Assembly (NCBI GenBank): GCA_022825235.1
Contig: JAJDYI010000017.1
Coordinates: forward strand, 124,001-188,000
Reading direction: 5' to 3'
Length of the DNA: 64,000 nucleotides
Source of the DNA: Alphaproteobacteria bacterium
Lineage (GTDB): Bacteria > Pseudomonadota > Alphaproteobacteria > TMED109
The notes under the pieces: generated by a model
Seen by the model: the letters and a program-made list of their open reading frames with translations, nothing else
What the model was told of the DNA's origin: nothing
The model's database searches: none
Shown here: piece by piece, positions 28,598 through 57,070 of the stretch
Numbering within the stretch: the first letter of the stretch is position 1
Layout of the letters: each line of letters starts with the position of its first letter
Position numbers and translations under genes: made by a program

Positions 28598-28673
28598 GCC
28601 CAGGTAGCTCAGTTGGTAGAGCACGCGACTGAAAATCGCGGTGTCGGTGGTTCAATTCCTCCCCTGGGCACCA
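28598..28673 (+). tRNA. tRNA-Phe(GAA), likely integration site of the mobile element
   Basis: Acceptor GCCCAGG/CCTGGGC, anticodon stem CGCGA/TCGCG with loop CTGAAAA (anticodon GAA) and T-arm GGTGG-TTCAATT-CCTCC. The discriminator is A at 28670 and CCA is encoded. The phage-type integrase lies 140 bases downstream on the same strand, the classic attL arrangement with recombination in the tRNA 3' end. Confidence 0.97.
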
Positions 28674-28695
28674 CCGCCTGTTCCAGAACATTCTC

Positions 28696-28724
28696 TTGAG
28701 GACCCATAACCACCTTGTTTATAT
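28696..28724 (+). promoter_or_regulatory. Candidate integrase promoter
   Basis: TTGAGG (28696-28701), 17 bases, then TTATAT (28719-28724), about 90 bases before the integrase start. Sigma-70-like match by eye only. Confidence 0.45.
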
Positions 28725-28774
28725 AGGAATATGCTCTCATAAGCGGCTTGCACATTCCCTCACATTCTTGTATC

Positions 28775-28807
28775 TTCCCACTCAGAGTGTGGGAATATTT
28801 GTGGGAA
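28775..28807. repeat. Triple GTGGGAA repeat next to the integrase start
   Basis: TTCCCAC (28775-28781) and GTGGGAA (28789-28795) form an inverted repeat around seven bases. A third GTGGGAA lies at 28801-28807, seven bases before the integrase GTG. Such short repeats beside attL are typical of integrase arm sites or excisionase/repressor operators. Confidence 0.5.
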
Positions 28808-28813
28808 TAATTC

Positions 28814-29995
28814 GTGTCGAAGCTTACCGTTGCACGAATCAATGCCTTGACTGCTCCCGGCAGGCATGGTGACGGGGCGACCCTTTACCTGTTTATCACC
28901 CCGGGTGGCACCAAAAGTTGGGTGCAAAGGGTCATGATCGCGGGTCGTCGATGTGACATCGGACTGGGTGCGTACCCAACGATCAGCCTTGCCAAGGCGA
29001 GACGATTGGCGGCAGCCAACCGCACGTTGATCGCCGAAGGGGGTGACCCGCTAGCGGATAAGCGGAAGGCGGCGACCCCGACATTTCGGGAGGCTGCTGA
29101 ACGTACGTTCGAGGCGAACAAGACCCGATGGCGCAATGCCAAGGCGACCGCGAACTGGATGCAGTCGTTGGAGCGTTATGCCTTTCAGTCAGTCGGAAGC
29201 ATTCGCGTCGACCAAATCAACCGTGAACACCTTCTGCGGATTCTGACGCCGATTTGGACCAACAAGCCGGAAACAGGCCGGAAGGTTCGACAGCGGATCC
29301 GGGCGGTCCTGTCATGGGCACAGGCCCATGGCTATGTCGAGCATAATCTGGCAGGGGATGCCATTAGCGGGGCATTGCCAACACAAAAGTCGGTCCAGGC
29401 TCATTTTCGAGCGTTGCCGTACCAGGAAGTTGGTATGGCGCTGGAAACCGTCGAAAGTTCGGGGGCGGGCCTGTCGGCCAAGCTGTGTCTTCGATGGGTG
29501 GTTCTCACTGCGACGCGGAGTGGCGAAGCTCGAGGTGCTAGGTGGGCCGAAATCGATCATGAGGCGTGTGAATGGCGCATCCCGGCCGAACGCATGAAAT
29601 CGGCCGTAGATCACGTTGTCCCGTTGTCGAATGCAGCGATGTCTGTTTTGAGAGAAGCCGAGAATCTGCGTGAAACCAGTTCAGACTTGGTGTTTCCGTC
29701 TCCTTCCAAACCGGGCCGGGCCCTTAGCGACGCCACCCTGACCAAGGTTCTCAGGACGGTAGGTTTGGCTGACCGAGCAACCGTGCACGGGTTCCGGGCC
29801 ACGTTCAGGACGTGGGCAAGCGAGCGCACGTCAACTCCGCACGCAATCATGGAGGCTGCGCTCGCTCATCGAGTCCCCGATTCCACTGAACGAGCTTATT
29901 CGCGGAGTGACTATCGGAACCGACGGCGGATCCTGATGCAGCGATGGGGAGATTACGTGACCGGCAGTCCTGCAAAGGTGTTGGCGTTCCGGTGA
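28814..29995 (+). CDS. int: Tyrosine recombinase, P4-type integrase
   Basis: Integrase of 393 residues. The N-terminus (MSKLTVARINALTAPGRHGDG) is the DUF4102 arm-binding domain of P4/prophage integrases. A core-binding domain follows at about 90-200. The catalytic residues are R in TATRSGEARGARW, HGFR in the second box, H in LAHRVPD and Tyr in ERAYSRSDY. Start GTG 28814 leaves the protein starting MSKLT. Position beside tRNA-Phe indicates it integrated the adjoining island. Confidence 0.92.
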   Translation: MSKLTVARINALTAPGRHGDGATLYLFITPGGTKSWVQRVMIAGRRCDIGLGAYPTISLAKARRLAAANRTLIAEGGDPLADKRKAATPTFREAAERTFEANKTRWRNAKATANWMQSLERYAFQSVGSIRVDQINREHLLRILTPIWTNKPETGRKVRQRIRAVLSWAQAHGYVEHNLAGDAISGALPTQKSVQAHFRALPYQEVGMALETVESSGAGLSAKLCLRWVVLTATRSGEARGARWAEIDHEACEWRIPAERMKSAVDHVVPLSNAAMSVLREAENLRETSSDLVFPSPSKPGRALSDATLTKVLRTVGLADRATVHGFRATFRTWASERTSTPHAIMEAALAHRVPDSTERAYSRSDYRNRRRILMQRWGDYVTGSPAKVLAFR

Positions 29996-33595: not shown

Positions 33596-33774
33596 CAAGC
33601 GCGGATAGGCAACCCGCCAAAGCCGGACGGCTAGGAAGGCCCGCAGGATCTGTCCGGGGATGGCGTCGCGATGCCGGTGCGACGCACGCAGGAACTCCAC
33701 CCGCTACGTCGGGCGAAAACACCCTCCTTCGCGCAGAAGGCGGTCCGTGCAGGAAATCACCTAACTAAAGCCTG

Positions 33775-33804
33775 TTGTAGACGATATTTGTTCTATTTAT
33801 GTTC
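33775..33804 (+). promoter_or_regulatory. Promoter with LexA-type site GTTC-N7-GTTC
   Basis: TTGTAG (33775-33780), 17 bases, TATGTT (33798-33803). GTTC-TATTTAT-GTTC at 33790-33804 overlaps the -10 box. GTTC-N7-GTTC is the known alphaproteobacterial LexA box. The next ATG (33812) would be at or within a few bases of the transcript start. Confidence 0.6.
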
Positions 33805-33811
33805 TCAAGCT

Positions 33812-34516
33812 ATGAGACGCCTGGAAGATCAGTTCCGTACCGCACTACGCGCATACCTGACTCAGCGTGGGATCAGCGGGCGACACTTTGGACGGAAAGT
33901 CCTTGGCGACCCCGGCTTTGTCGCGTCGCTTGATCGAGGCCGGCGGATCGGCCTGCGGACCGCCGATCGAGTGCTTGCCTTCATGGGTGAGCCAACCATT
34001 GGTCCTGCCTTCCGGCGCGAGGTCGAGGCCTTCCTTTGTCACCGTGGTGCGAAGGCGTACGTGCTCGGCCAAGAGACGACGGGGGACTTCTCCTTCGTCA
34101 AGCGGCTGCGCAAGGGCGAATCCTTCCGGCTCGAGACCGTGGACCGGGTGCGGGCCTGGATGTGCGCACGGGCCGACGAGTCATGCCTCAGGGCGATGCA
34201 CGAGGCTGTGGCGGGGAACCCGCTGCTCGCGCCGCACGCCGATACCGATGCTCCGGCCGGACCCGCATTCACACAACCAGGAGAGACCAGCATGATGAAC
34301 CAAGAGGGAACTTATCTCAGCACGCGCCGGGCGGCAGCCTACCTGGGGCTGTCGCCTCGCACGCTGGATCGCTACCGGGTGAGTGGCGGCGGACCCGACT
34401 TTCACCGCTTTGGCGGCCGGGTCCTGTACCGCAAGACCGATCTTGAGCGCTGGGCCACTGAGCGCAGGGTGAGGTCGACGCCCGAGGGGGACATTGAGCC
34501 CCGGAGGGTGGCTTGA
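33812..34516 (+). CDS. DNA-binding regulator with duplicated domain and C-terminal excisionase-like HTH
   Basis: A 234-residue frame from ATG 33812. Two related halves can be read: VLGDPGFVASLDRGRR...TADRVLAFM (about 29-58) and VLGQETTGDFSFVKRLRKG...VDRVRAWM (about 86-120), both shaped like small phage-type HTH units. From about residue 166 comes LSTRRAAAYLGLSPRTLDRYRV, a MerR/HTH_17 domain. ATG 34292, preceded by AGGAGA, could be an internal start making the last domain alone. It overlaps the pilin gene (TGATG), so it is translationally joined to the transfer operon and is its likely regulator. Confidence 0.65.
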   Translation: MRRLEDQFRTALRAYLTQRGISGRHFGRKVLGDPGFVASLDRGRRIGLRTADRVLAFMGEPTIGPAFRREVEAFLCHRGAKAYVLGQETTGDFSFVKRLRKGESFRLETVDRVRAWMCARADESCLRAMHEAVAGNPLLAPHADTDAPAGPAFTQPGETSMMNQEGTYLSTRRAAAYLGLSPRTLDRYRVSGGGPDFHRFGGRVLYRKTDLERWATERRVRSTPEGDIEPRRVA

Positions 34517-34851
34517 TGGGTCTCCGCGTCCCGTCGGCGCCGGGGAGCCGCCGGGATCGCCTGGTCAGGATGGCAACGCTCGCGATCGTGTCGCTCTTCC
34601 TCGTGTTCCTCGGGATCGACCTGGCGTTCGCCACCACCGACACGACATTCGACGCCCCGCTCGACACCGTGACCGACATGGTCTCGGGCACCGGCGGGCA
34701 GCTCGCGGCGGCGCTCGCAGTGGGCGCGGCGCTGGTGGGTTCGGTACTCCGTTTCAACGCCATGCAGCTGATGGGCGCGGTCGGCGTGGGGGTCGCGGCG
34801 GGCGCCGGCACGGGCATCGTGACCGGCCTCGTCGGCACGGCGATCGTCTGA
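34516..34851 (+). CDS. traA: F-type conjugative pilin (TraA-like)
   Basis: Protein of 111 residues. A basic leader and hydrophobic stretch end at GIDLAFA, a likely leader-peptidase site. The mature part of about 70 residues has two hydrophobic helices (GGQLAAALAVGAALVGSVL and GVGVAAGAGTGIVTGLVG). Size, two-helix layout and place before traL match F-type pilin. The sequence itself is poorly conserved in this family, so position carries much of the call. Confidence 0.75.
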   Translation: MGLRVPSAPGSRRDRLVRMATLAIVSLFLVFLGIDLAFATTDTTFDAPLDTVTDMVSGTGGQLAAALAVGAALVGSVLRFNAMQLMGAVGVGVAAGAGTGIVTGLVGTAIV

Positions 34852-34858
34852 GGCGATC

Positions 34859-35152
34859 GTGAGCGATACCCAGCGTCACGTCATCCCGCGCCGGCTCGAC
34901 GACCCCGAGCGCTGGTTGTTCTGGACGGTGGACGAGGCCGCGGTGCTGATGGGCCCGGCGCTCCTCGGCCTCGCCGCCAACCAGTTCGTGCCGGGCCTGG
35001 TCGCGGGCGTCGGCGGCTGGCTGCTGCTCCGCCGCGTCAAGCGCGGCGGCGGCGCCAACATCGCGCGCTACGCCCTCTACTGGTTCCTGCCGGACTTCGT
35101 GCTGCGCCTGAAGGCGACGCCGCCGAGTCACCTCCGGCGGTTCGTCGGGTAG
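34859..35152 (+). CDS. traL: Type-F conjugation protein TraL
   Basis: Small inner-membrane protein of 97 residues, GTG 34859. The pattern IPRRLDDPERWLFWTVDEA followed by a hydrophobic hairpin is characteristic of TraL, an early pilus assembly protein. It lies between traA and traE as in F. Confidence 0.88.
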   Translation: MSDTQRHVIPRRLDDPERWLFWTVDEAAVLMGPALLGLAANQFVPGLVAGVGGWLLLRRVKRGGGANIARYALYWFLPDFVLRLKATPPSHLRRFVG

Positions 35153-35159
35153 GGCGGGC

Positions 35160-35711
35160 ATGCAGCGCGAAATCATGGAGACCGGGCTTCGCCGCGCCCG
35201 CGACGCCCGCGTGGCGCTGGCAGGCCTCCTGGTGCTCTCGATGACCGCCAACCTCGTCCTCGCCGTCGGCCTCGCCGGGCGCGAGGCGGTCACCGTGCTC
35301 GTGCCCGCGGTGACCGGGCCGGCCTGGGAGGTCGGCGGAGGGCGCGCCGGCCAACGCTACCTCGAGGACATGGCGCGGACCGTGGCGGTGACGCTGCTCT
35401 CGCTCACGCCGGAGAACGCCGGGCACGTGCGCGAGGCGGCGGCCCGCCTGAGCCACCCCTCGGCGCGGGGCGCGATCAGTGCCTGGGTGGCGTCGGAGGC
35501 CCGGCGCATGGCCGGTCGCGACCTGGCCTCGGCGTTCTACCCCAAACGCATCAAGGCGAATCCGGGGACGCTTGCCGTCAACGTCGAGGGCGAGCTCGCC
35601 ACTTGGATCGGGCGGGAGGAAGCCGCCCGCGAGGACAGGCGCTACCGCCTCTCGTTCCGGCTCGACGCCGGACGGCTGGGCCTGGTGCGCTTCGAGGAGA
35701 TGGAGGAATGA
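35160..35711 (+). CDS. traE: Type-F conjugation protein TraE (VirB5/VirB8-position pilus assembly)
   Basis: Protein of 183 residues with one N-terminal membrane helix (VALAGLLVLSMTANLVLAVGL) and a periplasmic domain containing YLEDMARTVAVTLLSLTPEN and YPKRIKANPGTLAVNVEGEL. These match TraE, the VirB8-like scaffold of the F-type system. Its stop overlaps traK. Confidence 0.9.
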   Translation: MQREIMETGLRRARDARVALAGLLVLSMTANLVLAVGLAGREAVTVLVPAVTGPAWEVGGGRAGQRYLEDMARTVAVTLLSLTPENAGHVREAAARLSHPSARGAISAWVASEARRMAGRDLASAFYPKRIKANPGTLAVNVEGELATWIGREEAAREDRRYRLSFRLDAGRLGLVRFEEMEE

Positions 35712-36496
35712 ACATGTACCGGAACCCGACATGCAGACAGCCTGCCACTGGTAGCCGCGCCGGCCATCGCGTATCCGTGCTGCTGGTGGCGTGCGTCGCG
35801 TTTGGTGCCCTGCCCGGACCGGCCGCGGCGATCCAGACGCTGGAGGCGACGGACCATGCCGAGCTGGAGGCGGCAGTCTCCGCCACGGGCGTGAGTCGCG
35901 TGGCCCTGGCCGACGACCGGATCCGGCGGGTCATCCGGAGCCCGGGCGGGTTCGATGTCGAGCACGATGCCATCTCGGGTGATCTGTATCTCCGTCCCGT
36001 GGAAGCATTGGATCCGGCGTCGGACGGGATGGTTGGCGCCCCGTTGCCGATCACACTGTTCCTCGGCACCGAGCGGGGATTCACTTACCGCCTCTCGCTG
36101 ATTCCGGACGTCCGGCCCTCGGCCCAGGTGCTGATCCGCAATGCCGCCGCCGCTCCTGAATCAAATCTGCAGGCGTCGCCCACCGCGATGCGCGACACCA
36201 GGGTTGCGGAGTTGGCCCGGCTGGTGCAGGCCGCCGCGCGCCGCGAGGGCCTGCATGGCTACGCCGTCGAGGCGGGCCGGGCGGGGCCGGGCCACCGGGC
36301 TATCGAGACCTGGCGCGGGGCGCAGTTCACTGCGCATGTCATGGCAGTCGATTCCGCCGCTGACACAGGTGTGCTGGCCGAACGCTTCGGGACCGGGGTC
36401 GCCGCGGTCTGGATCGCCGCCCCGCAGCCCGGCGTGACCCGGGAACGGATAGCGGTCGTTGTGACGGAACCGGGCCGGGTGGGGGCCCGGCGATGA
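35708..36496 (+). CDS. traK: Type-F conjugation protein TraK (secretin-like, VirB9-like)
   Basis: Protein of 262 residues with a signal peptide (cleavage near GPAAA). It has a central block VALADDRIRRVIRSPGGFDVEHDAISGDLYL (given in parts) and PITLFLGTERGFTYRLSLIP, both typical of TraK, the outer-membrane core partner of TraB and TraV. Overlaps traE and traB by four bases each. Confidence 0.9.
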   Translation: MNMYRNPTCRQPATGSRAGHRVSVLLVACVAFGALPGPAAAIQTLEATDHAELEAAVSATGVSRVALADDRIRRVIRSPGGFDVEHDAISGDLYLRPVEALDPASDGMVGAPLPITLFLGTERGFTYRLSLIPDVRPSAQVLIRNAAAAPESNLQASPTAMRDTRVAELARLVQAAARREGLHGYAVEAGRAGPGHRAIETWRGAQFTAHVMAVDSAADTGVLAERFGTGVAAVWIAAPQPGVTRERIAVVVTEPGRVGARR

Positions 36497-37752
36497 GTGC
36501 GGCTGCAACCGGGGCCCGCGCGCAGGCGGTCGATGCCGATGCCGGTGGTGTACGCCGTCGCCAGCTGCTGGTCTTCTCAGGCCTGGCCGCCGTGCTGCTG
36601 GTGGCGCTCGCCCTGTGGCTTGGGATGGGCAGCGGCGGCGCGCCGCCTGCTGCAACCGGTATCGATGCCGAGCTGGCGGGACCGGATACTGCGGAGGAGG
36701 CGTGGACGCGGCGATCGGAGGCGCGGATCGGGACGATCGAGGCTCGCCTCCGCGAGATGCAGACAGACGCCCGGCGCCTCGGCGCGGAGAACGAGCGGCT
36801 GAGGGAGCGGCTCGCTGCGGACGCGGCGGATGCACGTGCGGTGATCGACCGACAGGCCGCGATGATCGACGACCTGGAGCGGCGCGTGACGGAGCGACTG
36901 CCCGCGGTCGTGGATCCCGGGCAGGCGTCGGTGTTTCCGGGTGCGCCCGTCGGGCCGGGGCACGATGTCGACGATGGACTCCCGATCCCTGAGGCCCCGC
37001 CGCCGCTGATCGAGACCTTCGAATTGGACGGCTCGTCCTCCGGTGCCGCTGTAATCGAAGTTTGGAAGCCGCTCTCCACGTGGCTCCCCGCGGGGAGCCA
37101 CGCCGAGGCGGTCGTGCTCGCCGGCGTCGACGCTTCGGCCGGCATCTCCTCCCAGGGCGACCCGCGGCCGGTCCTTCTGCGGCTCACTGGCCCCGCCTGG
37201 ACCGCCGCCACGGACGGCATTGCCCAACGCGTGGACATCGCGGGTTGCACCGTGACCGGCGCTGCGCACGGCGATCTCTCGTCGGAGAAGGTCTACGCGC
37301 GGCTCCGGACCCTGACCTGCGCAGGTCCCGAGCCCGGGAGCGTGATCGAGACGGAGGTCGCGGGGTTCATCGCGGGCTCCGGCAAGACCGGGGTGCGCGG
37401 TCCCGTCGTGAGCCGCGAGGGCGCACTCGTCCAGAAGGCGTTCCTCGCGGGGCTCGTCTCGGGCGCCGGACAGGGGGCTGCGCAGGCATTCCAACCGCAG
37501 GCCGTCGCCACCGGCGGCGGCACGGCAGCGGTCGCCAACACCGGTCTTGCGGACATCGGCCGGGCAGGGCTGGGCGCGGGCGCTGCGTCCGCCGGCGGCA
37601 AGGTCGCGGACTACCTGATCCGCCGTGCCGAGCAGTACCAGCCGGTCATCCAGTTGCGTTCGGGCACGCGTGTGAGCGTCGTGTTCCTGGAAGGCGCCCG
37701 CCTCGACGGCGGGCTGCTCGGCGACCACGGCAACAGGGGGGAAAGCCAATGA
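36493..37752 (+). CDS. traB: Type-F conjugation protein TraB (VirB10-like)
   Basis: Envelope-spanning protein of 419 residues. A membrane helix (LVFSGLAAVLLVALALWLGM) is at about 25-45 and a coiled coil at about 70-125. The VirB10-type beta domain follows, with TWLPAGSHAEAVVLAGVDA and the conserved end region GTRVSVVFLEGARL. It connects inner and outer membrane rings of the transfer apparatus. Confidence 0.92.
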   Translation: MSAAATGARAQAVDADAGGVRRRQLLVFSGLAAVLLVALALWLGMGSGGAPPAATGIDAELAGPDTAEEAWTRRSEARIGTIEARLREMQTDARRLGAENERLRERLAADAADARAVIDRQAAMIDDLERRVTERLPAVVDPGQASVFPGAPVGPGHDVDDGLPIPEAPPPLIETFELDGSSSGAAVIEVWKPLSTWLPAGSHAEAVVLAGVDASAGISSQGDPRPVLLRLTGPAWTAATDGIAQRVDIAGCTVTGAAHGDLSSEKVYARLRTLTCAGPEPGSVIETEVAGFIAGSGKTGVRGPVVSREGALVQKAFLAGLVSGAGQGAAQAFQPQAVATGGGTAAVANTGLADIGRAGLGAGAASAGGKVADYLIRRAEQYQPVIQLRSGTRVSVVFLEGARLDGGLLGDHGNRGESQ

Positions 37753-38288
37753 AGACGAACGTGATGCGGTCACTTGGAGCGGGCGGGATTGTCGCCGCGG
37801 GTGCGCTGCTGGCGGGGTGCTCCGCCACCCATGTCGGCGAATCCTGGCAGTGCCCATTGGCCCAGGGCACCTCGTGCACGACCATCGTCGAGGCTGATCC
37901 CGCCGTGCCTGCCCGTGTCGCCCAGCCGGCCGTCATGTTCGGGGAGCCGCTGCGGGAAGCTCGCCGCCCGCTGGACGGTAATGCTGCCTGCGATGACGGC
38001 TGCGAACCGTTCGGCTGGCTCAGGGGGTTGTTCGGGGTCGGTTCCGACATCGATTCGTCCCACCCGGCACAGAAAACGCCCGAAACGGCCTCAGTTACCC
38101 ATCATTCCATCGGGCAGGATGGCGCGGCACCGTCAGCCCCGCCCGCGTCCGCTACTGAAGCGTCCCTCCGCGTGCCGGAGGTGCTGGGCCGCATCTGGAT
38201 CGCGCCCTTCGTCGATGCGGACGGCATCTACCGCGAGGCCCACTGGGTGTGGGTGGTGCTGGAACCGGCCGGCTGGAAGCTCCCGTGA
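37749..38288 (+). CDS. traV: Type-F conjugation lipoprotein TraV
   Basis: Protein of 179 residues with a lipobox LLAGCSAT giving a lipidated Cys at about residue 24. Further cysteines (about 35, 43, 78, 82) resemble the Cys-rich start of TraV (VGESWQCPLAQGTSC). The C-terminus has IWIAPFVDADGIYREAHWVWVV. Outer-membrane part of the core complex with TraK and TraB. Confidence 0.87.
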   Translation: MKTNVMRSLGAGGIVAAGALLAGCSATHVGESWQCPLAQGTSCTTIVEADPAVPARVAQPAVMFGEPLREARRPLDGNAACDDGCEPFGWLRGLFGVGSDIDSSHPAQKTPETASVTHHSIGQDGAAPSAPPASATEASLRVPEVLGRIWIAPFVDADGIYREAHWVWVVLEPAGWKLP

Positions 38289-40852
38289 TCGGCCGCCTGC
38301 TGGAACTCTTCGAGGGGCCGGAGGCGCCGGCTCCCTGGGTCCCGCCTGCGTTGCCGGCGACACTCCACCAGATCCTCCCTTGGCGCGCCTGGGACGAGCG
38401 GAGCGAACTCTACGCCAATGCGTCGAGCACGGGGTTCGTTCTGGAGATCCCACCCTTCATCGGGATCGACGAGGAGGTGGCGGGCGCGCTTGCGGGAACC
38501 TTCGCCGACGCCGCGCCGGAGCACTGCACCCTCCAGGTGCTGCACTGGGCGAGCCCCCGCTTCGGGGCCGCCTACGACGACTGGGCAGCGCCCCGTGCGG
38601 GTGCGGGCGGGGTCCAGGCGCGGATCGGTGAGCGCCGCGGCGCGCTGCTGCGCCCGGCCGGCTGGCGGAGGCTTCATGTCGGCGGCCCGCCAAACACGCT
38701 CTCCGACTACCGGGTCTTCGTCACCGCCTGCCTTGCGGGGCCGCCGGGACCGGCCGCGGAGACCGGGCTCGGCGCCTTCCGCCGCGCGCTTGAAGGCACG
38801 CTCGCGTCGGCGGGTGCGTGGGCGCGGCGGCTTGAGCCCGACGCGCTGCTTGCCCTCGCCGCCGAGCTCGTGGCGCCCGACGTCCGGGGCACGGACGACG
38901 GCGGCATTCGCCCGCCGCCCCGGCGCTGGTCGCCGCGCGATCCGCTGCACGAGCAGTGCATCGCGCCGGGGCGGGCGCTCACCGTCGCTCCCACGGGGCT
39001 CACCTTCCACCACCCTGACGGCGAGGATGTGGCCGTCAGGGTGCTTTCCGCGATCACCTATCCCGAGGTCTGGCCGGGGTGGCGGGGTAATGCGCTGATC
39101 GGCGACTTTCACCGCGACTTCCTGCAGCCTGGTTGCCCCGTGCTGACGGCGCTCGTCCTCACCACCGGCGACGAGGCAGCGGGCGAGAAGGCGTTCCTCA
39201 AGTCGGCCCGCGCCACCCAGCAGGCCGGGACCGGACTCGCACGGTATCTCCCGGGCCTCCCCGAGAAGGCGCGCGACTGGCAGGCGGTTACGGAGCGCGT
39301 CAAGGACGGCGAGAAGCTGGTGCGAGCCGCGTACATGGTGGCGGTGTACGCGCCGCTCGACGTGCTCGACGAGGCCGAGCAGGCGGTCCGTGCGATCTAC
39401 CACGGGCAGGGCTGGCGGGTCGCGGCCGAGCGCTACGTGCAGCTCCCCTCGTGGCTCGCGTGCCTGCCGATGGCGGCCGCGGGCGGGCTCGACGCCGACT
39501 TCGAGCGGCTGGGGCGCATGAAGACGCTCCTCACCTCGTCGGCGGTCAACCTCGCCCCCGTGCACGGCGAGTGGCGAGGCCAGCCGGCCAGTCCGGACAA
39601 CCCGCCGGCACTCTTCCTGATCGGCCGGCACGGCCAGCCCGCGTGCTGGTCGCCGTTCGCGAACGACGCCGGGAACTACAACGTCGCGGTCACGGGGAAG
39701 TCGGGCTCCGGCAAATCGGTCCTCATGCAGGAGCTGGTGACGGGCATCGTGGGTGCTGGCGGCGAGGCCGTGGTGATCGACGACGGCCGCTCGTTCCAGC
39801 ACACGGCGGAGGCGCTCGGCGGTGCCTTCATCGCGTTCGGCAAGGACGCCGCGACACTCAACCCCTTCGCCATGATCGACGCCGGGACGGCGAACCACGA
39901 CGGCGACTACCGCGAGGAGTGCTTCGCGATGCTGGCCGGCGTCATCGGCCGCATGGCGCGGCGTCGGGGCTCGATCGACGACATCGAGGCGGCGCTGATT
40001 GCCGAGGCCATCGCGGCAGCCTGGGACGAATTGGGCAACGAGGCCGATCTCGGCACGGTCTGCAGGAACCTCGAGGGCCGGAACGACCGCCGCGCCAGGG
40101 ACATGGCGACGGCGCTCGGCCCCTAGTGTCCGGGCGGGGCCATGGGGCGGCTGTTCGCGGGGTTGAACGTGCCGGATCTGGAGAACGCCATGACAGTGTT
40201 CGAGCTGGCCGAACTCAAGGGCCGGGGCGACATCCAGGGCGTCGTCCTCATGCTCGTCGTCTTCCTCGCCACGCAGCGCATGTACCACGGGCCCCGCACG
40301 CGCGCCAAGGCCATCGTGATCGACGAGGCGTGGGACCTGCTCTCGGGCGAGGACAGCAAGGCGTTCCTCGAAGGGGCGGCAAGACGGGCACGGAAGTACC
40401 GGGGCGCACTCGTCACCGGCACGCAGTCGGTCAATGACTACTACGCCAACCCGGCGGCAAGGGCCGCGTGGGAGAACTCGGACTGGGTGATCTTCCTCGC
40501 CCAGAAGGACGAATCGGTCGAGCTCCTGAAGCAGGAGAAGCGCATCCACTGCGATCCCGGCATGGAGCGCGCGCTCAAGAGCCTGGCCACCGCCGACGGC
40601 CGCTACGCCGAGCTGGTGCTGCACGGCCCCGACGGCTGGCGGGTGGCGCGCCTCGTGCTCGATCCGTGGTCGGTCGCGCTGTTCTCGTCGCGCGGCCCCG
40701 CCTTCGCGGCGGTCGAGAACCTGAAGGCGGAAGGGCTCACGACGACCGAGGCCATCGACCGCATCGCCGGTGGCGGAACCGCGACCGGCCCGGCCACCCG
40801 GGGGGATCAGCAGCAACAACCGGAACCGCAGGAACAGGGAGACCTTCCATGA
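38285..40852 (+). pseudogene. traC: Type-F conjugation ATPase TraC (VirB4-like) interrupted by an in-frame TAG
   Basis: Read through, the gene gives 855 residues, close to F TraC. It starts at GTG 38285, overlapping traV. Walker A VTGKSGSGKS is near 468-477. Codon 614 is TAG (40124-40126) in the sequence ATALGP-stop-CPGGAMGRLF. The same frame then continues with an intact second half including Walker B AIVIDEAWDLL (about 676-686) and GTQSVNDYY. A terminated product would lack Walker B. TAG is an ordinary stop in neighbouring genes (the soxC-like gene, the porin), so recoding is unlikely. Restart at ATG 40142 could make only the C-terminal fragment. Confidence 0.85.
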
Positions 40853-44059: not shown

Positions 44060-44793
44060 TCTCCGCGCTCCGCATGCCCGCCATGAACGCCTCGCTCCGC
44101 GTCGGGATGGCGCTCCTCGCCGGCGCCCTGGCATCCCCTGCCCCGGCCGTTGCGGAGGAAGCGCAATCCGGCCACGCGGACCTGGCGCGACAGCTCGCCG
44201 AGGAACTCTCCGCCAGCGCTGAGGCCGGACCTCTTGATGCTTGGTCGCGTGCGGTAATCGAACGGGCGCTGGAGCGCGCGGCCAGGGAAGCCGGGCCCGC
44301 ATCAGACGACGCCGTCACGCCCGCGCCGGTGTTCCGAGGCCAGTTAGGAACGGACGTAGCGAACCATGCGCCAACCGCCGAGGTGCTCCTCTTCACGAGC
44401 CTCGCCGTGCCGGCTGCGAGCTGGCGCGCGGCGGCGCGGGCTGCGGCCCGGATCGGGGCGCCGCTGGTGCTCGGCGGCGTGGCCGCGGGGAGCCTCCCGG
44501 CGACGGCGCGGCGGATCAGGATCCGCCTCGGGGACGCGAAGGTTGGCGTCGCGATTGATCCCAGATTGTTCCGCCTGTTCGGGATCGCGCGGGTGCCCGC
44601 CGTCGTCGTCGTGCCGGGCGGCGTGCCGCCCTGCCGGAGCCGCGGCTGCGCGGACGACGCGCCGCCCCCCTTTGATGTCGTCGCCGGAAACCTCTCGCTG
44701 GCCGCGGCGCTCGAGGCCGTCGCAGCGGAAGGCAGCGAGGGACGCGCGGTCGCGCGACGGCACCTGGCAACACTCAGGGGGAGTGGACGATGA
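44056..44793 (+). CDS. trbC: Type-F conjugation protein TrbC
   Basis: Exported protein of about 245 residues. The start is GTG 44056 overlapping traU, or ATG 44074; both give a signal peptide ending at PAVAEE. The C-terminal half has a thioredoxin-like fold typical of TrbC (EVLLFTSLAVPAASWRAAAR, FGIARVPAVVVVP). In F the corresponding gene acts with TraW. Overlaps traN by four bases. Confidence 0.88.
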   Translation: MISALRMPAMNASLRVGMALLAGALASPAPAVAEEAQSGHADLARQLAEELSASAEAGPLDAWSRAVIERALERAAREAGPASDDAVTPAPVFRGQLGTDVANHAPTAEVLLFTSLAVPAASWRAAARAAARIGAPLVLGGVAAGSLPATARRIRIRLGDAKVGVAIDPRLFRLFGIARVPAVVVVPGGVPPCRSRGCADDAPPPFDVVAGNLSLAAALEAVAAEGSEGRAVARRHLATLRGSGR

Positions 44794-45860
44794 CGAAACG
44801 GTGGATCGGCGCGGGCGTGGCCGTGCTGGCAATGGCAGCGGGCACGACAGGGACGGCGCTGGCCCAGGACCCGAAGGCGGCGGCCCGCGCCATCGGGCAG
44901 GCGGGGCTGCAGGCCGCGGGCGAGGTGGCGCGCAACGCCGCGAGCGCCGACGAGGTGCCGGGCTACGCGGGAACAGACCTCCCCGAACGCCGGCTCACGG
45001 CGGACGGCATGCCGTCCGCAGCCAATGCTCGGCTCGCCGATCCGGCCGATCCCGGCGGCGAGGCCGGGCGCGCGGTGATCGAGGGCGCGACCCGGCGCCC
45101 GGCTGCCGAGGTGCCGGCCTCCGATCCCGCCGTCGTCCGCGCCGAGGGGGTCGCGGTCACGCCGCAGGCCGCGGCGCACGGCGCCGGCGGGCTGGCATCG
45201 GGCAGTGTTCAGGATTGCGGCGCCGGCCTGCAGGACGCGCAATCGGGCGGCGCCTGCGGGTCCGTCCGGTACTGCGTCGGCGCGGACTGCGAGAGCGTGC
45301 GCCCGCAGGCGAACGACGGCTTCGTCGACGCCGCGGCGAAGCTCAACATGGTGATGGAGCTCGGCGGCGACGAGTTCGACCGGAGCGACCTCCGGTTCTT
45401 CAAGGGCCAGCGCAAGGCGTGCAAGATCAGGCTTGCCGGCCTCGCCAACTGCTGCACGAACTCCGGGTTGCTGGTGGGACTGGGCAACTGCAGCACCGCG
45501 GAGCGCGAGCTCGCGCAGGAGCGCCACGACGGCAACACCCGCTACCTCGGCGAGTTCTGCGCGCGGCGCATCCTCGGGATTTGCGTCACGCGCGAGCGGC
45601 GCTGGTGCGTGTTCGGCTCGAAGCTCGGGCGCATCCTGCAGGACCAGGGGCGGGCCCAGCTCGGCATCGGCTGGGGGAGCTGCCGCGGCCTCACCGTCGC
45701 CGAAATCGAGGGCATCGACTTCGACGCGCTGGACCTCGGCGAGTTCACCGCCGACCTGCTCGACGGCGGCAAGGAGCCGTCCGTCTCGCTCTCGGACGCG
45801 GGCGGCACACAGACCCTCATGCGGGACCGCGTCCGCGCGTTCTACGGCCGGGGTGACTGA
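44790..45860 (+). CDS. traN: Mating-pair stabilisation protein TraN (short form)
   Basis: Outer-membrane protein of 356 residues with a signal peptide (cleavage near GTALA). F TraN is about 600 residues, so the variable recipient-contacting region is much reduced. The Cys-rich C-terminal half is kept: KACKIRLAGLANCCTNSG, EFCARRILGICVTRERRWCVFGSKLGRI (in parts) and the QLGIGWGSCRGLTVAEI block. Confidence 0.9.
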   Translation: MTKRWIGAGVAVLAMAAGTTGTALAQDPKAAARAIGQAGLQAAGEVARNAASADEVPGYAGTDLPERRLTADGMPSAANARLADPADPGGEAGRAVIEGATRRPAAEVPASDPAVVRAEGVAVTPQAAAHGAGGLASGSVQDCGAGLQDAQSGGACGSVRYCVGADCESVRPQANDGFVDAAAKLNMVMELGGDEFDRSDLRFFKGQRKACKIRLAGLANCCTNSGLLVGLGNCSTAERELAQERHDGNTRYLGEFCARRILGICVTRERRWCVFGSKLGRILQDQGRAQLGIGWGSCRGLTVAEIEGIDFDALDLGEFTADLLDGGKEPSVSLSDAGGTQTLMRDRVRAFYGRGD

Positions 45861-45861
45861 G

Positions 45862-46677
45862 ATGCCGGCGGGCGCGCGACGGGCCGGCATGGCGCCGGGC
45901 GTACCGGTGATCCTGGTGCTGGCCTTCGCGTCGTCGGCCGGAGCGGGGGAGTGGCGGCCCTGGTGCGGCGACGCTGCCACGGGCCCGTCGCTCGGCTGGC
46001 ACTTCTACTGCGACCGGGACGACGCCCCGGACGAGCCTCCTTCCCAAGTCCCGCCGGAGGTGACGCCGCCGTCCGCGCACGCACGCATCCTGGAGATGCG
46101 CCGCGAGCTCGAGGAGGCGCGCGCCACGGCGATCCTCGAGCCGTCGCCGGCGCACGTTAGCGCGTATCTCCGCCTCCAGCAGGAAGCGCTGCAGAGGTCG
46201 GCGGCCTTCTCGGACAGCTTCCGCCGCACGGTCTGGGCGACGCCAGCCCTCGACTACACGCTGCGGCGCCCGGTCGGGGCGCTCGCCAAGCAGCTCTGGT
46301 CTGACGAACGCCGTGCCGCCCGGGACGCGGCGCTTGCCGCGTTGGGCGAGCACTACGGGCTCATCTACCTGGGCGATCCCGCCTGCGCCGGCTGCCGGGT
46401 GTTCGGCCCGCTGCTCCGCGCGTTTGCACTCCGCCACGGCCTCGACGTACTCGCGGTTTCGATGACCGGCGAAGCGCTCGAAGGCTGGCCGGAGGCAGTG
46501 CCAGATGATGGCCGGGCCGCGAGCCTCGGCCTCGCAGGCTCGCCCCTGCCGGCGATCGTGCTGTTCGACGCGGCCACGCAGCAGGTATTGCCCGTGGGGT
46601 TCGGCGTCCTCGCCGAGGACCAGCTCGCCGAGCGGATCTTCGCACTGACCGCACTGGAGGTCGGTCGTGACTACTGA
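45862..46677 (+). CDS. traF: Type-F conjugation protein TraF (thioredoxin-like)
   Basis: Periplasmic protein of 271 residues. ATG 45862 is one base after the traN stop; GTG 45853 is possible. After a signal peptide come HFYCDRDD and a helical region with PSPAHVSAYLRLQQEAL. The thioredoxin domain has an active-site-like CAGC (DPACAGCRVFGPLL). The Cys pair is intact here, while many TraF proteins have lost it. Likely helps fold TraU, TraN and TraH. Confidence 0.92.
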   Translation: MPAGARRAGMAPGVPVILVLAFASSAGAGEWRPWCGDAATGPSLGWHFYCDRDDAPDEPPSQVPPEVTPPSAHARILEMRRELEEARATAILEPSPAHVSAYLRLQQEALQRSAAFSDSFRRTVWATPALDYTLRRPVGALAKQLWSDERRAARDAALAALGEHYGLIYLGDPACAGCRVFGPLLRAFALRHGLDVLAVSMTGEALEGWPEAVPDDGRAASLGLAGSPLPAIVLFDAATQQVLPVGFGVLAEDQLAERIFALTALEVGRDY

Positions 46678-48100
46678 TTCGGCCCGGCGAAGGACGCGCC
46701 GGTTGCCGGCGCTGGCGGCCGCCGGGTTGCTGTTGGCCGCGCCCGCGCATGCCGACGTGCTCTCGGAGATGAACCGCTTCTGGCAGGGGGCCGCGGTCAA
46801 CACCACGGGCCCGACGGCCTTCGAAGGGCAGGCGTCGGGCCACTGGACGCTCGGCAACCTCTACCTCCGCTCGCCGGTGCGCTCGGAGCAGATCGCGACG
46901 GTCAACCTGCCGTCCTTCCGGGCGGGGTGCGGCGGCATCGACGCGTTCGCGGGCGCGTTCTCCTTCATCGATTCGGACCAGCTGGTCGCCTTCGCGCGCG
47001 CCATTGCCCAGAACGCTGCGGGGTTCGCCTTCGAGCTGGCGCTCGAGACCATCTCGCCCGTCATCGCCGAGACGATGTCGAAGCTTCGCGCCCTTGCCCA
47101 GTGGGCGAACAACCGGAACGTCAATTCCTGCGAGACTGCGCAGGCGCTCGTGGGCGCCGTCTGGTCGAGGAACGACCGGGCGTCGGCCGCGATCTGCGCC
47201 GCCATCGGCACGTCGCAGGGGATCTTCACCGACTATGCCGCCGCGCGGCACGGGTGCGGCGCCGACGGCCAGCGTCACTCCACCCTGGCCGCCGCCTCGG
47301 GCGAGATGGCCGAACAGGTCCCCGTCAACGTCAACTACGCGTGGAAGGCGGTGCTGGCGTCGTCGTTCCTGTCGGCCGACACGCGGCTCGCCGAGTTCGC
47401 CATGTCGGTCTCGGGCACGGTGATCGTGACGGCGCCCACGGCGGATGCCGACACGTCGGGCCCGCGCGTCCGGGTCCTGGAGCCGCTCGCGCTCGACCGC
47501 CGGGTGACGGAGGTTCTGATGGAGGGCGGCGGCGCGCTCCCGGTGTACACGTGCGACACGACGGCCCGCTGCCTCAACCCGACGCTGGGGAGCGTCACGG
47601 TGCCGGCCGACCAGGGGTTCCGCGCGCGCGTGGCGGCGCTGCTCCGCGAGCTGGTCGCGGCCGTGCGCAACGACACCGCGCCGCCCGCTGCCGCGCTGGG
47701 CCTGGTCAACTTGACGACGCTTCCCGTCTACCGGGTCGCCAACACGGCGGCGGCCTACCGCGGCGCCGTCGTCGATCAGGAGATCGACGCGCTCGCCGAG
47801 GCGGTCGCCCTCGACCTCCTCCAGGTCTGGATCGCCGACCTCCACCGCACGGTCGAGGAGAGGGCCGGCACGCTCGACATTGCCGACGGCGAGCAGCTCG
47901 CGCGTTGGCGCGAGGGGCTCCGCGCCAACCGCACCGCACTTGCCCGCCACCGCCACGAGGGCCTCGAGCGCTTCAACACGGCGCTCGCCGTCGTGGAGAA
48001 GCTCAGGCTCATCGAGACCGAGCTTGCGGGCGCGCTCTCGGCCGACCTCCGCGCGGCGCTGGCGTTCGCCCGCGGCGGCGCCGGGGCCGGGTCGCGCTGA
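46667..48100 (+). CDS. traH: Type-F conjugation protein TraH
   Basis: Periplasmic protein of 477 residues, GTG 46667, signal peptide ending APAHA. Diagnostic: FWQGAAVNTTGPTAFEGQA, YLRSPVRSEQIATVNLPSFRAGCGGIDAF (in parts) and SCETAQALVG. The long C-terminal helical region is present. Involved in pilus assembly with TraF and TraW. Confidence 0.95.
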   Translation: MTTDSARRRTRRLPALAAAGLLLAAPAHADVLSEMNRFWQGAAVNTTGPTAFEGQASGHWTLGNLYLRSPVRSEQIATVNLPSFRAGCGGIDAFAGAFSFIDSDQLVAFARAIAQNAAGFAFELALETISPVIAETMSKLRALAQWANNRNVNSCETAQALVGAVWSRNDRASAAICAAIGTSQGIFTDYAAARHGCGADGQRHSTLAAASGEMAEQVPVNVNYAWKAVLASSFLSADTRLAEFAMSVSGTVIVTAPTADADTSGPRVRVLEPLALDRRVTEVLMEGGGALPVYTCDTTARCLNPTLGSVTVPADQGFRARVAALLRELVAAVRNDTAPPAAALGLVNLTTLPVYRVANTAAAYRGAVVDQEIDALAEAVALDLLQVWIADLHRTVEERAGTLDIADGEQLARWREGLRANRTALARHRHEGLERFNTALAVVEKLRLIETELAGALSADLRAALAFARGGAGAGSR

Positions 48101-48114
48101 GCCAGCACCCATAG

Positions 48115-50982
48115 ATGTACGAGCTCTTCACCCTCGGCGGCGGCCCGTACCTGGTCGACCTCCTGAACGCGGTCGCCGCGATCACGTCGGGGGGCGCGTA
48201 CGTGACGCTGGCCCAGCTCGCGGGCGCGGGCGGCGTCGCGTGGATCGTGTTCCGCACGGCTTTCGGCGGGAGCTGGCGCGACAACGGGAAGTGGATCCTC
48301 CTCTTCGTCACGGTCTGGGGCGTGATGATCGTGCCGAAGGCAACGGTCAGGGTAGTCGACCGGCTGGACCCGGCACTCGCCTCCGCCGTGGTCGCCAATG
48401 TCCCCGTGGGCTTGGCGCTCTTCGCCTCGATCACCTCGCAGGTCGGGGACGGCCTCACACGCCTCACCGAGCAGGCGTTCACCCTCCCGAACAACCTCCA
48501 GTACCGCCGGCACGGGTTGATCTTCGGGGCGAGGCTCGCCGCCACGGCGACCCGGCTCGAGGTGACGGACGCGGTCTTCGCCCGGAACCTTCGGAACTTC
48601 ACCCGCCAGTGCGTCTTCCACGCGCTGCTCTTGGGCCACATCTCGGCCGACGACCTCCGCGAGAGCACCGACGTCTGGGGCCTGGTCACGGCCGGGGGCA
48701 CGCCGTCGGCGGGGGCCTCGCCCGCGCGCATGTTCGAGTTCGCGACGCGCCAGCCCGCGGGCGCCACCGGTGCGACGCCCGTCGATAGGGAGATCGTTAC
48801 CTGCCGCGACGGTGCCGCCCGGCTGAACACCGCATGGGCCGCCGAGATCGCGCGCGCCGGCACGCTGTTCGGGCGGCGCATCTTCCCGGACGCGAGGACC
48901 GAGGCGCTGGCGCGCGCCGAGCTGCTGGCGGCGCTCCCCGCCGCCCACGACTTCCTGATCGGCGCTTCGCGCTCGGCCGCCGAGATCCTCCGTCAGCAGA
49001 TGGTGCTGAATGCCGTGCACGACGCCGGCGAGCAGTGGGCGGCCGAAGCCGGCAACGCCGCCGCCCTCCAGACCTACACCGAGGCCCGCGCCGAGGCCCA
49101 GACCGCCGCGGCGTACCGGGCGATCGGGCGGCAGGCGGAGACCTGGGTGCCGCTTTTGCGCATCGTCTTCGAGTGTCTCTACGTCGGCGCCTTCCCGCTG
49201 GCGGTACTCCTGATGCTGACGCCCGCCGGGTTGCCGATCTTCAAGTCGTACGTGACGGGGCTGATCTGGCTGCAGTCGTGGGGGCCGCTCTACGCCGTGC
49301 TCCACCGCATCTCGATGGGGGAGGCAGCGGAGCGGATGCAGGCGGCCGCCGTCATGCCGAACGGCGACGTCGGCATCTCGCTGGTGGCCCAGGCCGGCAT
49401 CCGCGCCGTCGCGGCCGACGTCGCGGTGATGTCGGGGTACCTCTCGATGTCGATCCCGTTCCTGGCGGCGGCTCTGGCCTACGGGCTCTCGAAGGCGACG
49501 GTGCTCGCAACCTCCGTGCTCGCCGTCGGGCAAGACGCCGCGACCTCGGCGGCGCACGAGGGCACGACCGGGAACCTGGCGCTCGCCAACACGCAGTGGG
49601 ACACGCACCGGTTCGCGAGCCAGGAGGGCCGCCAGCTCCGCACCTCGATGCACGTCGACACGGACAGGTACACGGGCTACGCGCCGGCGGGCGCCGGCTT
49701 CACGGTGACGCCGGACGGCACGGCGGTTGCGGACATGGGGAGTGCGACCAGCCGGGTGCCGGCGGCGGGGGTGCGCCTGTCGGAATCGCTCGCGGTCTCG
49801 CACGAGGAGCGCGCCGCCGAGGCGCACTCGCTGGGGCGCAACTGGGACGTGCAGGCGGCGACGGCGCGGACGGCCGCGGCCACGGATGCCACGCAGATGG
49901 TGGAGCGGTACTCGCACGACGTGAGCGTCGGCACGGCGCACGCGCGGGGCGTGACAGAGAGCGAGAGTGCGCAGGCCCAGGAACTCGCGAGCCATATCGA
50001 GAAGCTGGCGGACGCCGGCGGGATCACTAGGGAGCAGGCGGCAAGCCTGACCGGCGAGGCCAAGCTCGGCGGGGGGTTCAACATGATCGCGCGGTTCGGT
50101 GCCGACGGCTCCGCGATGTGGCGCGGCCAGACCTTCGAGCGCGAAACCTGGGAGCGCATGCGCGACTATGCCGAGAGTCAACAGGTCACGGACCTCTGGT
50201 CCCGTGTCGCCGAGGCGTCGCGGCGCTACTCGACCTCGACGGGCGACAGTGAGCTTGCGAGCCTGGAGGAGAGCTTCGGCGCCAACCTCACCCGGATGCA
50301 GCGCTTCGAGGATCGGGCCGCGCTGAGCTACGGCGAATCGGAGCAGTGGTCGGAGCAGGCTGCCCAGGTGCGCGCCGACGCGCAGGCGATCGAGCGCGAC
50401 CTCGGGCAGCCCTTCTTCGCCTGGCTCGCGGAGCGCGAGGGCACGGCCGGGAGGCCCATCGGCGTCGCCGGGGCCATGCGCCTCGCCTCCCCGCAGACCC
50501 CGGAGGACGCCGAGGCGCTCCGCGAGCACGCGGCGGCATTCATCGGCGAGCGGTTCCCGGCGCCGGCCGGGCCCGACCCGGCGTCCGTCGCCGGACGGGC
50601 GGAGTACGAAGTCGAACGTGCAGGGTTCGGTGAAGCCCGCGGGCCGGCGCCCGCGGCGGCGCACGCTGGCTGGACTGCGGACATCCATGACCGGGCCGCG
50701 GCGGCGGGTGCGCCCGAAGCGGGCGAGGTCGGGGCGAAGGCCGGGACTCACCGGGCCGCCGCGGAAGGCGACCTCGCGCAGCGCGGGAAGGTCCGCGCCA
50801 CGCGGACGGAACTGGCGGAGGACATGGTCCGCGACGGCCGACATGCGACCGCGGGTGAAGTCGAGCGACCGTTCGCGGAGCATGCCACGGCGGGCGTGCC
50901 GTTCGGCGGCGAGTGGCTGGCCGGGAAGCTCTACGGCACGGCCAGGAACGCTGCGCCCGACCGGGGGGAGTCGGCCCGGTGA
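48115..50982 (+). CDS. traG: Conjugal transfer protein TraG (mating-pair stabilisation)
   Basis: Membrane protein of 955 residues. Start is ATG 48115, 15 bases after traH. The N-terminal membrane region opens MYELFTLGGGPYLVDLLNAVA. Further helices lie at about 350-390 and 430-465. A long soluble periplasmic C-terminal part rich in Ala, Glu and Gln follows. In F it stabilises mating pairs and contributes to entry exclusion. Last gene of the main transfer operon. Confidence 0.93.
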   Translation: MYELFTLGGGPYLVDLLNAVAAITSGGAYVTLAQLAGAGGVAWIVFRTAFGGSWRDNGKWILLFVTVWGVMIVPKATVRVVDRLDPALASAVVANVPVGLALFASITSQVGDGLTRLTEQAFTLPNNLQYRRHGLIFGARLAATATRLEVTDAVFARNLRNFTRQCVFHALLLGHISADDLRESTDVWGLVTAGGTPSAGASPARMFEFATRQPAGATGATPVDREIVTCRDGAARLNTAWAAEIARAGTLFGRRIFPDARTEALARAELLAALPAAHDFLIGASRSAAEILRQQMVLNAVHDAGEQWAAEAGNAAALQTYTEARAEAQTAAAYRAIGRQAETWVPLLRIVFECLYVGAFPLAVLLMLTPAGLPIFKSYVTGLIWLQSWGPLYAVLHRISMGEAAERMQAAAVMPNGDVGISLVAQAGIRAVAADVAVMSGYLSMSIPFLAAALAYGLSKATVLATSVLAVGQDAATSAAHEGTTGNLALANTQWDTHRFASQEGRQLRTSMHVDTDRYTGYAPAGAGFTVTPDGTAVADMGSATSRVPAAGVRLSESLAVSHEERAAEAHSLGRNWDVQAATARTAAATDATQMVERYSHDVSVGTAHARGVTESESAQAQELASHIEKLADAGGITREQAASLTGEAKLGGGFNMIARFGADGSAMWRGQTFERETWERMRDYAESQQVTDLWSRVAEASRRYSTSTGDSELASLEESFGANLTRMQRFEDRAALSYGESEQWSEQAAQVRADAQAIERDLGQPFFAWLAEREGTAGRPIGVAGAMRLASPQTPEDAEALREHAAAFIGERFPAPAGPDPASVAGRAEYEVERAGFGEARGPAPAAAHAGWTADIHDRAAAAGAPEAGEVGAKAGTHRAAAEGDLAQRGKVRATRTELAEDMVRDGRHATAGEVERPFAEHATAGVPFGGEWLAGKLYGTARNAAPDRGESAR

Positions 50983-53967: not shown

Positions 53968-53968
53968 C

Positions 53969-56900: not shown

Positions 56901-57070
56901 CCCGGGAGTCGTCCGGCCGCGCGGCCGAAGCCGGCCGCTCACGCGGGCAACCGTCGGCACATGGCGCCGGCAGGGATGCCGCCGGGGACCGGGCAGGCCC
57001 GGCACCGGGAGCTCCGGAACGCGCATCGGGCCGTCCGGAGCGCAGCCGGGACGCCGGGCTGGACCTGTAG
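53969..57070 (+). CDS. traI: MobF-family relaxase-helicase TraI/TrwC
   Basis: Protein of 1033 residues from GTG 53969, one base after traD. The N-terminal relaxase opens VLSIGAIASAAQGASYYEKDGYY with the tyrosine cluster used for nicking. It has the three-His metal site in LDPQLHTHAVLAN (about 160-172). The helicase half has Walker A QGYAGTGKTTML near 520, VLVVDEGSLAS and the final STVHAFQGRTVDNVIA. It cuts oriT and unwinds the strand for transfer. The C-terminal about 60 residues are low complexity. Confidence 0.95.
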   Translation: MLSIGAIASAAQGASYYEKDGYYAKDDAEHREASAWFGKGAAALGLKGSVDADTFRAVLEGKVPDGSGTELGKRGRDGEITHRPGRDLTFSAPKSVSIAALVGGDGRIVGAHDRAVQATLAWVEKNAVQTRMQDPGIGRMVRSGDQKCVVATFRHDTSRNLDPQLHTHAVLANMAQGEDGKWRSMANEALYERQKLIGAIYRNELAAGLTRLGYAIEKTHADGRFEIAGVSREATRAFSTRRAEIEAAMAAGGPGTSADNPRHAQRAALMTRATKREIDRDELRHVWQRQAADLGLDVGGFVAGALARRIVQERGSGSRVQEAAPAVNSVVSLTTAAEIDRRYEGREAAVASDGRDARPPPGLPNAVGRPGRVPAGAAAPAGPGESLHDRGTANRAVAWAMAHLSEREAVFARADLLAAALSYAPGAFSVGAVEREVAGLQKAGALHAVSLPGSRDSLATDRTVGEERETIALMRAGQARGQAPMRRRAVRQHLHKGPLTAGQKDAVALILAAKDRVVGVQGYAGTGKTTMLDRARTLAERKGWRMLGLAPSASAVKTLAAEANIESQTLQGFLARNAGVAAGRLTKRGAREMRAAFAKTVLVVDEGSLASTVQARDLLRIANELRIPRVALVGDAKQLDAVDAGKPFAQLQAAGMPTAPMDEILRQRDPALKEAVEASLKGEIHRAFEKLGSNVTEAAARDLADTVAGRWLALPPDAREKTGVMAPSHALRLRINGHIREELAREGRLQGPAAEVERLVSRGYTRAERALAGNYAKGDVVAFQRAYRRIGVAKGEERRVVGVDGRRGAVLLDDGKGGSVAWKPARIGGLKGGTEVYRPEGIELRAGDRIRWTRNDAGLGLVNSRTAEVLGVANGRVAFRLEDGRRLDLRPGDPQLRHLDHAWASTVHAFQGRTVDNVIAAMEARHPHLTTQKSFYVEISRARDRAELVTDDASDLRAQLQAVTGEHIAALEGIEEMPRESSGRAAEAGRSRGQPSAHGAGRDAAGDRAGPAPGAPERASGRPERSRDAGLDL

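What the first reader, a model, noticed from the sequence alone, without database searches (positions are those of the whole stretch)
33775..34516. LexA-type site controlling the head of the conjugation operon
GTTC-TATTTAT-GTTC overlaps the -10 box of a promoter whose first gene, a putative regulator, overlaps the pilin gene by TGATG. Every gene on to traG then follows with overlaps or small gaps. If functional, DNA damage would directly induce transfer genes. A motif this short is expected once or twice by chance in a window this size; its position is what makes it notable.
Basis: partly seen in the sequence, partly recalled or inferred. Interest (0 to 1): 0.7.

Follow-up and report, generated by a model that had tools for sequence, protein, structure and literature searches.

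The report
LexA-type switch on conjugation operon
A DNA-damage control site, matching the one this bacterium uses for its own error-prone repair genes, sits on the start switch of a mobile element's DNA-transfer operon and is kept in related elements of two bacterial families, so DNA damage probably turns the transfer genes on.

Summary
GTTC-TATTTAT-GTTC is at 33790-33804, overlapping the -10 (TATGTT) of a TTGTAG-N17-TATGTT promoter 7 bp before the ATG (33812) of a regulator gene that overlaps the pilin gene by TGATG and heads an F-type tra operon. It is not chance. Only two GTTC-N7-GTTC sites in the 3.85 Mb genome have an all-A/T spacer: this one and the imuA-imuB-dnaE2 promoter, the classic LexA target. 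A related tra operon (head protein 74% identical) carries exactly the imuA 15-mer at the same place. Exact boxes at identical geometry precede five other distinct tra heads in two alphaproteobacterial families; half-sites are 100% conserved in five lineages while the rest of the promoter spacer is about 37% identical. New finding: many sister operons have a divergent HTH-S24 (CI/SetR-like) repressor at this promoter. The window lineage lacks it and keeps only the LexA-type box; others have both, or only the repressor. Best reading: host LexA directly represses an operon whose first gene carries an excisionase-like domain. LexA binding and induction are inferred, not shown. This copy's traC has a premature TAG. 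No published precedent was found in the papers searched. A new variant of SOS-controlled conjugative elements.

The parts
33775..33780 (+). -35 hexamer TTGTAG
   Evidence: Read from sequence; TTG and the 17-nt spacing to the -10 conserved in 11 homologous head promoters
33790..33804 (+). LexA-type box GTTC-TATTTAT-GTTC
   Evidence: identical in L062/L063, exact GTTC-N7-GTTC in L059, L056, L064, L082, L108 at -21/-22; 5 of 7 spacer bases match the host imuA box
33798..33803 (+). -10 hexamer TATGTT, overlapping the second half-site; 8 nt to the start codon (likely leaderless mRNA)
   Evidence: 7-9 nt -10 to ATG in all aligned heads
33812..34516 (+). Head gene, 234 aa: two helical HTH-like repeats plus C-terminal HTH_17 / excisionase-like domain; conserved first gene of this operon class
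   Evidence: HTH_17 E 3e-10; TIGR01764 excise below cut-off; AlphaFold pLDDT 79.7, C-terminal domain best PDB hit RdfS excisionase 8dgl; start supported by homologues
34516..34851 (+). Pilin (TraA/TrbC-like)
   Evidence: PF04956 E 8e-5 (below cut-off), NF041281 weak; 68-98% identical homologues in the same position
34859..35152 (+). traL
   Evidence: PF07178 E 4e-30
35160..35711 (+). traE
   Evidence: PF05309 E 5e-36
35708..36496 (+). traK
   Evidence: PF06586; start
36493..37752 (+). traB
   Evidence: PF03743; NF010289 TraB
37749..38288 (+). traV-like lipoprotein
   Evidence: PF09676 E 8e-4, just below cut-off; stop
38285..40852 (+). traC, interrupted by in-frame TAG at 40124-40126 where relatives have Trp
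   Evidence: PF11130
41890..44059 (+). S26 peptidase (TraF-type), traW, traU
44790..50982 (+). traN, traF, traH, traG
51919..57070 (+). traD coupling protein and MOB_F relaxase (TrwC/TraI)
28598..29995 (+). tRNA-Phe and adjacent tyrosine integrase, likely left end of the element
   Evidence: integrase 98% identical in L062

Best explanation
The box is a genuine operator of the host's LexA repressor. LexA bound over the -10 of the leaderless head promoter blocks RNA polymerase. On DNA damage RecA filaments trigger LexA self-cleavage and the promoter opens, giving one long transcript: first the regulator with its excisionase-like domain, then pilin and the F-type transfer genes to traG. Excision and transfer would so be placed in the host SOS regulon. 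In this element family the same promoter is controlled in some lineages by an element-encoded divergent HTH-S24 repressor, in some by both, and in the window's lineage, which has lost or never had that repressor, by the LexA-type box alone. Shown: the site, promoter geometry, operon, match to the host imuA box, conservation, and the repressor's presence or absence. Inferred: LexA binding, induction by damage, and the excisionase role.
For: imuA-imuB-dnaE2 in the same genome carries GTTCTTTATATGTTC (reverse complement) in its promoter, conserved 7/7 in the genus; literature gives GTTC-N7-GTTC as the alphaproteobacterial LexA motif and imuA as a persistent target (PMC3323433, PMC8565304), and Caulobacter SOS genes use GTTCttgttatGTTC (PMC12700426). 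L059's tra promoter holds the imuA 15-mer exactly at -21. Window and imuA sites are the only two all-A/T-spacer sites in 3.85 Mb, 0.044 expected. Same box and geometry in L056, L064, L082, L108, each upstream of head+tra genes. Half-sites 100% identical in five lineages against 37% for the rest of the spacer. Clade-level chance about 3e-6 to 3e-5 under a simple model. Another family's genomes also have N7 boxes with A/T spacers at imuA. Genome encodes a LexA with winged HTH and S24 domain. No homologue of the divergent repressor in the window.
Against: No expression or binding data. The second half-site overlaps the -10, so part of its conservation could be promoter constraint. lexA's own promoter in this genus has GAAC-N6-GAAC, not N7, and recA has no box, so the regulon is only partly anchored. 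Related tra operons L060, L061, L100 share the promoter but lack the box, and L065 is degenerate. Elements are related, so independence is limited to about three clades. traC is interrupted in this copy.
Confidence: 0.78

Rival explanations
1. The GTTC repeats are the operator of the element-encoded divergent HTH-S24 repressor (SetR/CI-like), not of LexA; the window copy keeps a relic of it.
For: Five or more sister operons have this repressor divergently transcribed about 90 bp (141 bp in L061) from the head gene, with a Peptidase_S24 domain, and four of these also carry an exact or near box (L056, L064, L065, L082; the divergent ORF is visible upstream of L108 too).
Against: Box and repressor dissociate: L060, L061 and L100 have repressor but no box; window, L062, L063 and L059 have a perfect box but no repressor homologue. 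The L059 box equals the host imuA box, a chromosomal LexA target.
Confidence: 0.1
2. Chance: the motif arises from an AT-rich -10 region in which TATGTTC happens to follow GTTC.
For: Bare motif occurs 5 times in the window against 1.7 expected; 138 times in the genome; half of it is -10 sequence.
Against: Conserved first half-site, which is outside both hexamers, in at least three clades while flanks diverge; all-A/T spacer shared only with imuA.
Confidence: 0.06
3. The site was a functional LexA operator in the element family, but this copy is a decaying remnant in which it no longer matters.
For: In-frame TAG in traC; no copy of the tRNA-Phe 3' end found as a right attachment site in the window.
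Against: Head, pilin, TraL, E, K, B, U, H and G frames are open and about 90-98% identical to the closest relatives; box and promoter intact; could be a MAG consensus error.
Confidence: 0.3

Closest known systems
SXT/R391 ICEs with SetR
   Same: F-type transfer genes in an integrated element; SOS linkage; sister elements here have a divergent HTH plus Peptidase_S24 repressor at the early promoter (PMC4542580)
   Different: In SXT, SetR controls setCD activators, not the tra operon promoter directly; in the window no SetR-like protein is present and the box is of host LexA type
Alphaproteobacterial LexA regulon (imuA-imuB-dnaE2, Caulobacter SOS genes)
   Same: GTTC-N7-GTTC with A/T-rich spacer in a promoter; identical 15-mer in a sister element
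   Different: Target is a conjugation operon of a mobile element rather than repair genes
Phage GIL01 using host LexA as its repressor (PMC4551915 abstract)
   Same: A mobile element placing its induction directly under host LexA
   Different: Phage of Bacillus, different LexA box, needs a phage co-factor gp7
RdfS of ICEMlSymR7A
   Same: C-terminal domain of the head protein is the closest solved fold (8dgl, about 41% identity over 56 columns); RdfS is needed for excision and transfer (PMC11963761)
   Different: Head protein has an extra N-terminal double repeat and is first gene of the tra operon; excision role untested

Membership tests
Alphaproteobacterial LexA box | GTTC-N7-GTTC direct repeat | tested here: met
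   Exact at 33790-33804
Alphaproteobacterial LexA box | Located in a promoter, able to occlude RNA polymerase | tested here: met
   Overlaps the conserved -10
Alphaproteobacterial LexA box | Resembles known LexA targets of the same genus | tested here: met
   imuA box conserved 7/7; identical 15-mer in L059 tra promoter
Alphaproteobacterial LexA box | Conserved in related elements | tested here: met
   Five other distinct heads in two families; absent in L060, L061, L100
Alphaproteobacterial LexA box | Bound by LexA and induced by DNA damage | not testable with these tools
   Needs gel shift and expression data
F-type (MPF_F, MOB_F) integrative conjugative element | traL/E/K/B/C/W/U/N/F/H/G, traD and TraI-type relaxase | tested here: met
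F-type (MPF_F, MOB_F) integrative conjugative element | Integrase and flanking attachment repeats | tested here: inconclusive
   Integrase beside tRNA-Phe; no repeat of the tRNA 3' end of 14 nt or more elsewhere in the window
SetR-controlled SOS-induced ICE | Element-encoded HTH plus S24 repressor | tested here: not met
   No homologue in the window; present in sister elements
RdfS-type recombination directionality factor | Winged HTH of excisionase type | tested here: met
   HTH_17 and Foldseek match to 8dgl
RdfS-type recombination directionality factor | Promotes excision by its integrase | not testable with these tools
   Needs excision assay

The most novel reading that the evidence does not exclude
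A family of alphaproteobacterial conjugative elements trades its own phage-type S24 repressor for the host's LexA: at one conserved leaderless promoter, some members use the encoded repressor, some both, and some LexA alone, so that a whole tra operon led by a gene with an excisionase-like domain becomes a direct member of the host SOS regulon.
Probability: 0.6. Interest if true: 0.68.

Novelty: new variant of a known kind. Interest (0 to 1): 0.58.

Why it matters
SOS-induced conjugation is known mainly through element-encoded repressors such as SetR. Direct host-LexA control of a whole transfer operon, with natural sister promoters that have only the S24 repressor, both, or only the LexA box, would give a ready-made comparative system to ask why mobile elements outsource their damage sensing to the host, and would mean that DNA damage spreads these elements directly.

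Tried and rejected
Searched plasmids for the head protein: only the C-terminal HTH_17 domain matched, in unrelated contexts such as MPF_T plasmids. Checked tra operons headed by HTH_17 alone (L099, L105, L081, L107) or with no recognised head (L078): no box. Non-tra paralogues of the head (the C80 family, L058) have no box. Looked for a box at recA: none; at lexA: N6 spacing only. Looked for an att repeat of the tRNA-Phe end: none in the window. Literature searches for LexA directly controlling a tra operon found none in the held library; in E. coli plasmid pTF2, weak predicted boxes at tra genes were judged unlikely to be functional (PMC12211044). Considered the longer ORF start at 33671: rejected, since homology begins at about 33809-33812.

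Full report
Observation. The motif GTTC-TATTTAT-GTTC lies at 33790-33804. It sits across a promoter TTGTAG-17 nt-TATGTT whose -10 overlaps the second half-site; eight bases later is the ATG (33812) of a 234-aa protein. Its stop overlaps the pilin start as TGATG, and traL, traE, traK, traB, traV, traC and on to traG follow with overlaps or very small gaps. The bare motif is not rare: 5 in the window against 1.69 expected in shuffles, 138 in the 3.85 Mb genome.

Why it is more than chance. Restricting the genome-wide pattern to sites whose last two spacer bases are A/T gives 15 sites, of which only two have a fully A/T spacer: the window site and a site on C3. The C3 site is the promoter of imuA-imuB-dnaE2, the cassette reported to be persistently under LexA wherever present (PMC3323433). 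At the window's G+C content 0.044 such sites are expected among 138. The imuA box GAACATATAAAGAAC is unchanged in all seven genomes of the genus. GTTC-N7-GTTC is the published alphaproteobacterial LexA motif (PMC3323433, PMC8565304, PMC12700426).

Related elements. The head protein followed by pilin-TraL-TraE-TraK-TraB-TraC is found in this genome and its genus mates (in L061 the contig ends within traL), and further tra heads were found in another family. Exact boxes occur at the same place (21-22 bp before the ATG, second half-site on the -10): window, L062, L063 (same sequence), L059 GTTCTTTATATGTTC, L056 GTTCTCAATATGTTC (second element in this genome), L064 GTTCTCCTTACGTTC, and in the other family L082 GTTCCACATACGTTC and L108 GTTCTTTCTACGTTC; L065 has one mismatch. 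L059's box is identical to the imuA box. In register, the eight half-site columns are 100% identical in five lineages, while the non-core spacer positions are 37% identical. Three of these half-site bases belong to the -10, so the independent signal is the first GTTC and the last C; counting five such bases and treating clades as units, chance is about 3e-6 to 3e-5 under a simple independence model.

A second finding. Several sister operons carry, divergently transcribed about 90 bp from the head gene (141 bp in L061), a protein with an N-terminal HTH and a Peptidase_S24 domain, the layout of phage CI or SXT SetR repressors. Box and repressor sort independently: L060, L061 and L100 have only the repressor; L056, L064 and L082 have both; the window lineage and L059 have only the box, and no homologue of the repressor is present in the window. 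This dissociation and the imuA identity argue that the box belongs to LexA rather than to the element's repressor. For L082 and L100 the fetched stretch ends before the S24 domain, so there only the HTH part is seen.

The first gene. AlphaFold gives two helical HTH-like repeats and a confident C-terminal winged HTH whose best solved match is the RdfS excisionase of ICEMlSymR7A, a protein needed for excision and transfer (PMC11963761). If the head protein is the element's excision factor, LexA release would couple excision with transfer-gene expression. This is inference.

Caveats. No binding or expression data exist. lexA itself carries GAAC-N6-GAAC, conserved 7/7, and recA has no box. traC in this copy has a TAG in place of a Trp codon, so transfer by this copy may be lost, although a consensus error in a draft genome is possible. 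Tra operons headed by HTH_17 alone have neither this promoter nor the box.

Verdict. It is a new variant of SOS-controlled conjugative elements; no direct precedent for LexA on a tra operon head was found in the library searched, which does not cover all literature.

Noticed in passing
window 40124-40126: In-frame TAG in traC where three relatives have Trp; transfer ATPase of this copy probably truncated, or a consensus error.
   Followed up: partly
L021 1501-1515 and L025 1501-1515 (G000 C20 and C40): Two paralogous small ORFs (MTEPQDHHTVAREDLLFT...) each with a GTTC-N7-GTTC box with an A/T-rich spacer just upstream of a likely -10; no Pfam match. Candidate new SOS genes.
   Followed up: partly
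L110-L116, just upstream of lexA: lexA promoter of the genus has GAAC-N6-GAAC, invariant in 7 genomes, instead of the N7 spacing.
   Followed up: partly
L118 (G000 C51) and L117, L119-L122: A second LexA-like protein, about 30% identical to LexA, found in six of the seven genus genomes. Target unknown.
   Followed up: no
G000 C12, C19 (two), C47: Four TraL copies at separate tra loci, suggesting four related conjugative elements in one genome, two with the LexA-type box and two headed by HTH_17 alone without it.
   Followed up: partly
L131-L134 (family of G304): Upstream of imuA-like genes, overlapping ATTC-N7-GTTC-N7-GTAC type repeats, a possible diverged LexA site.
   Followed up: no
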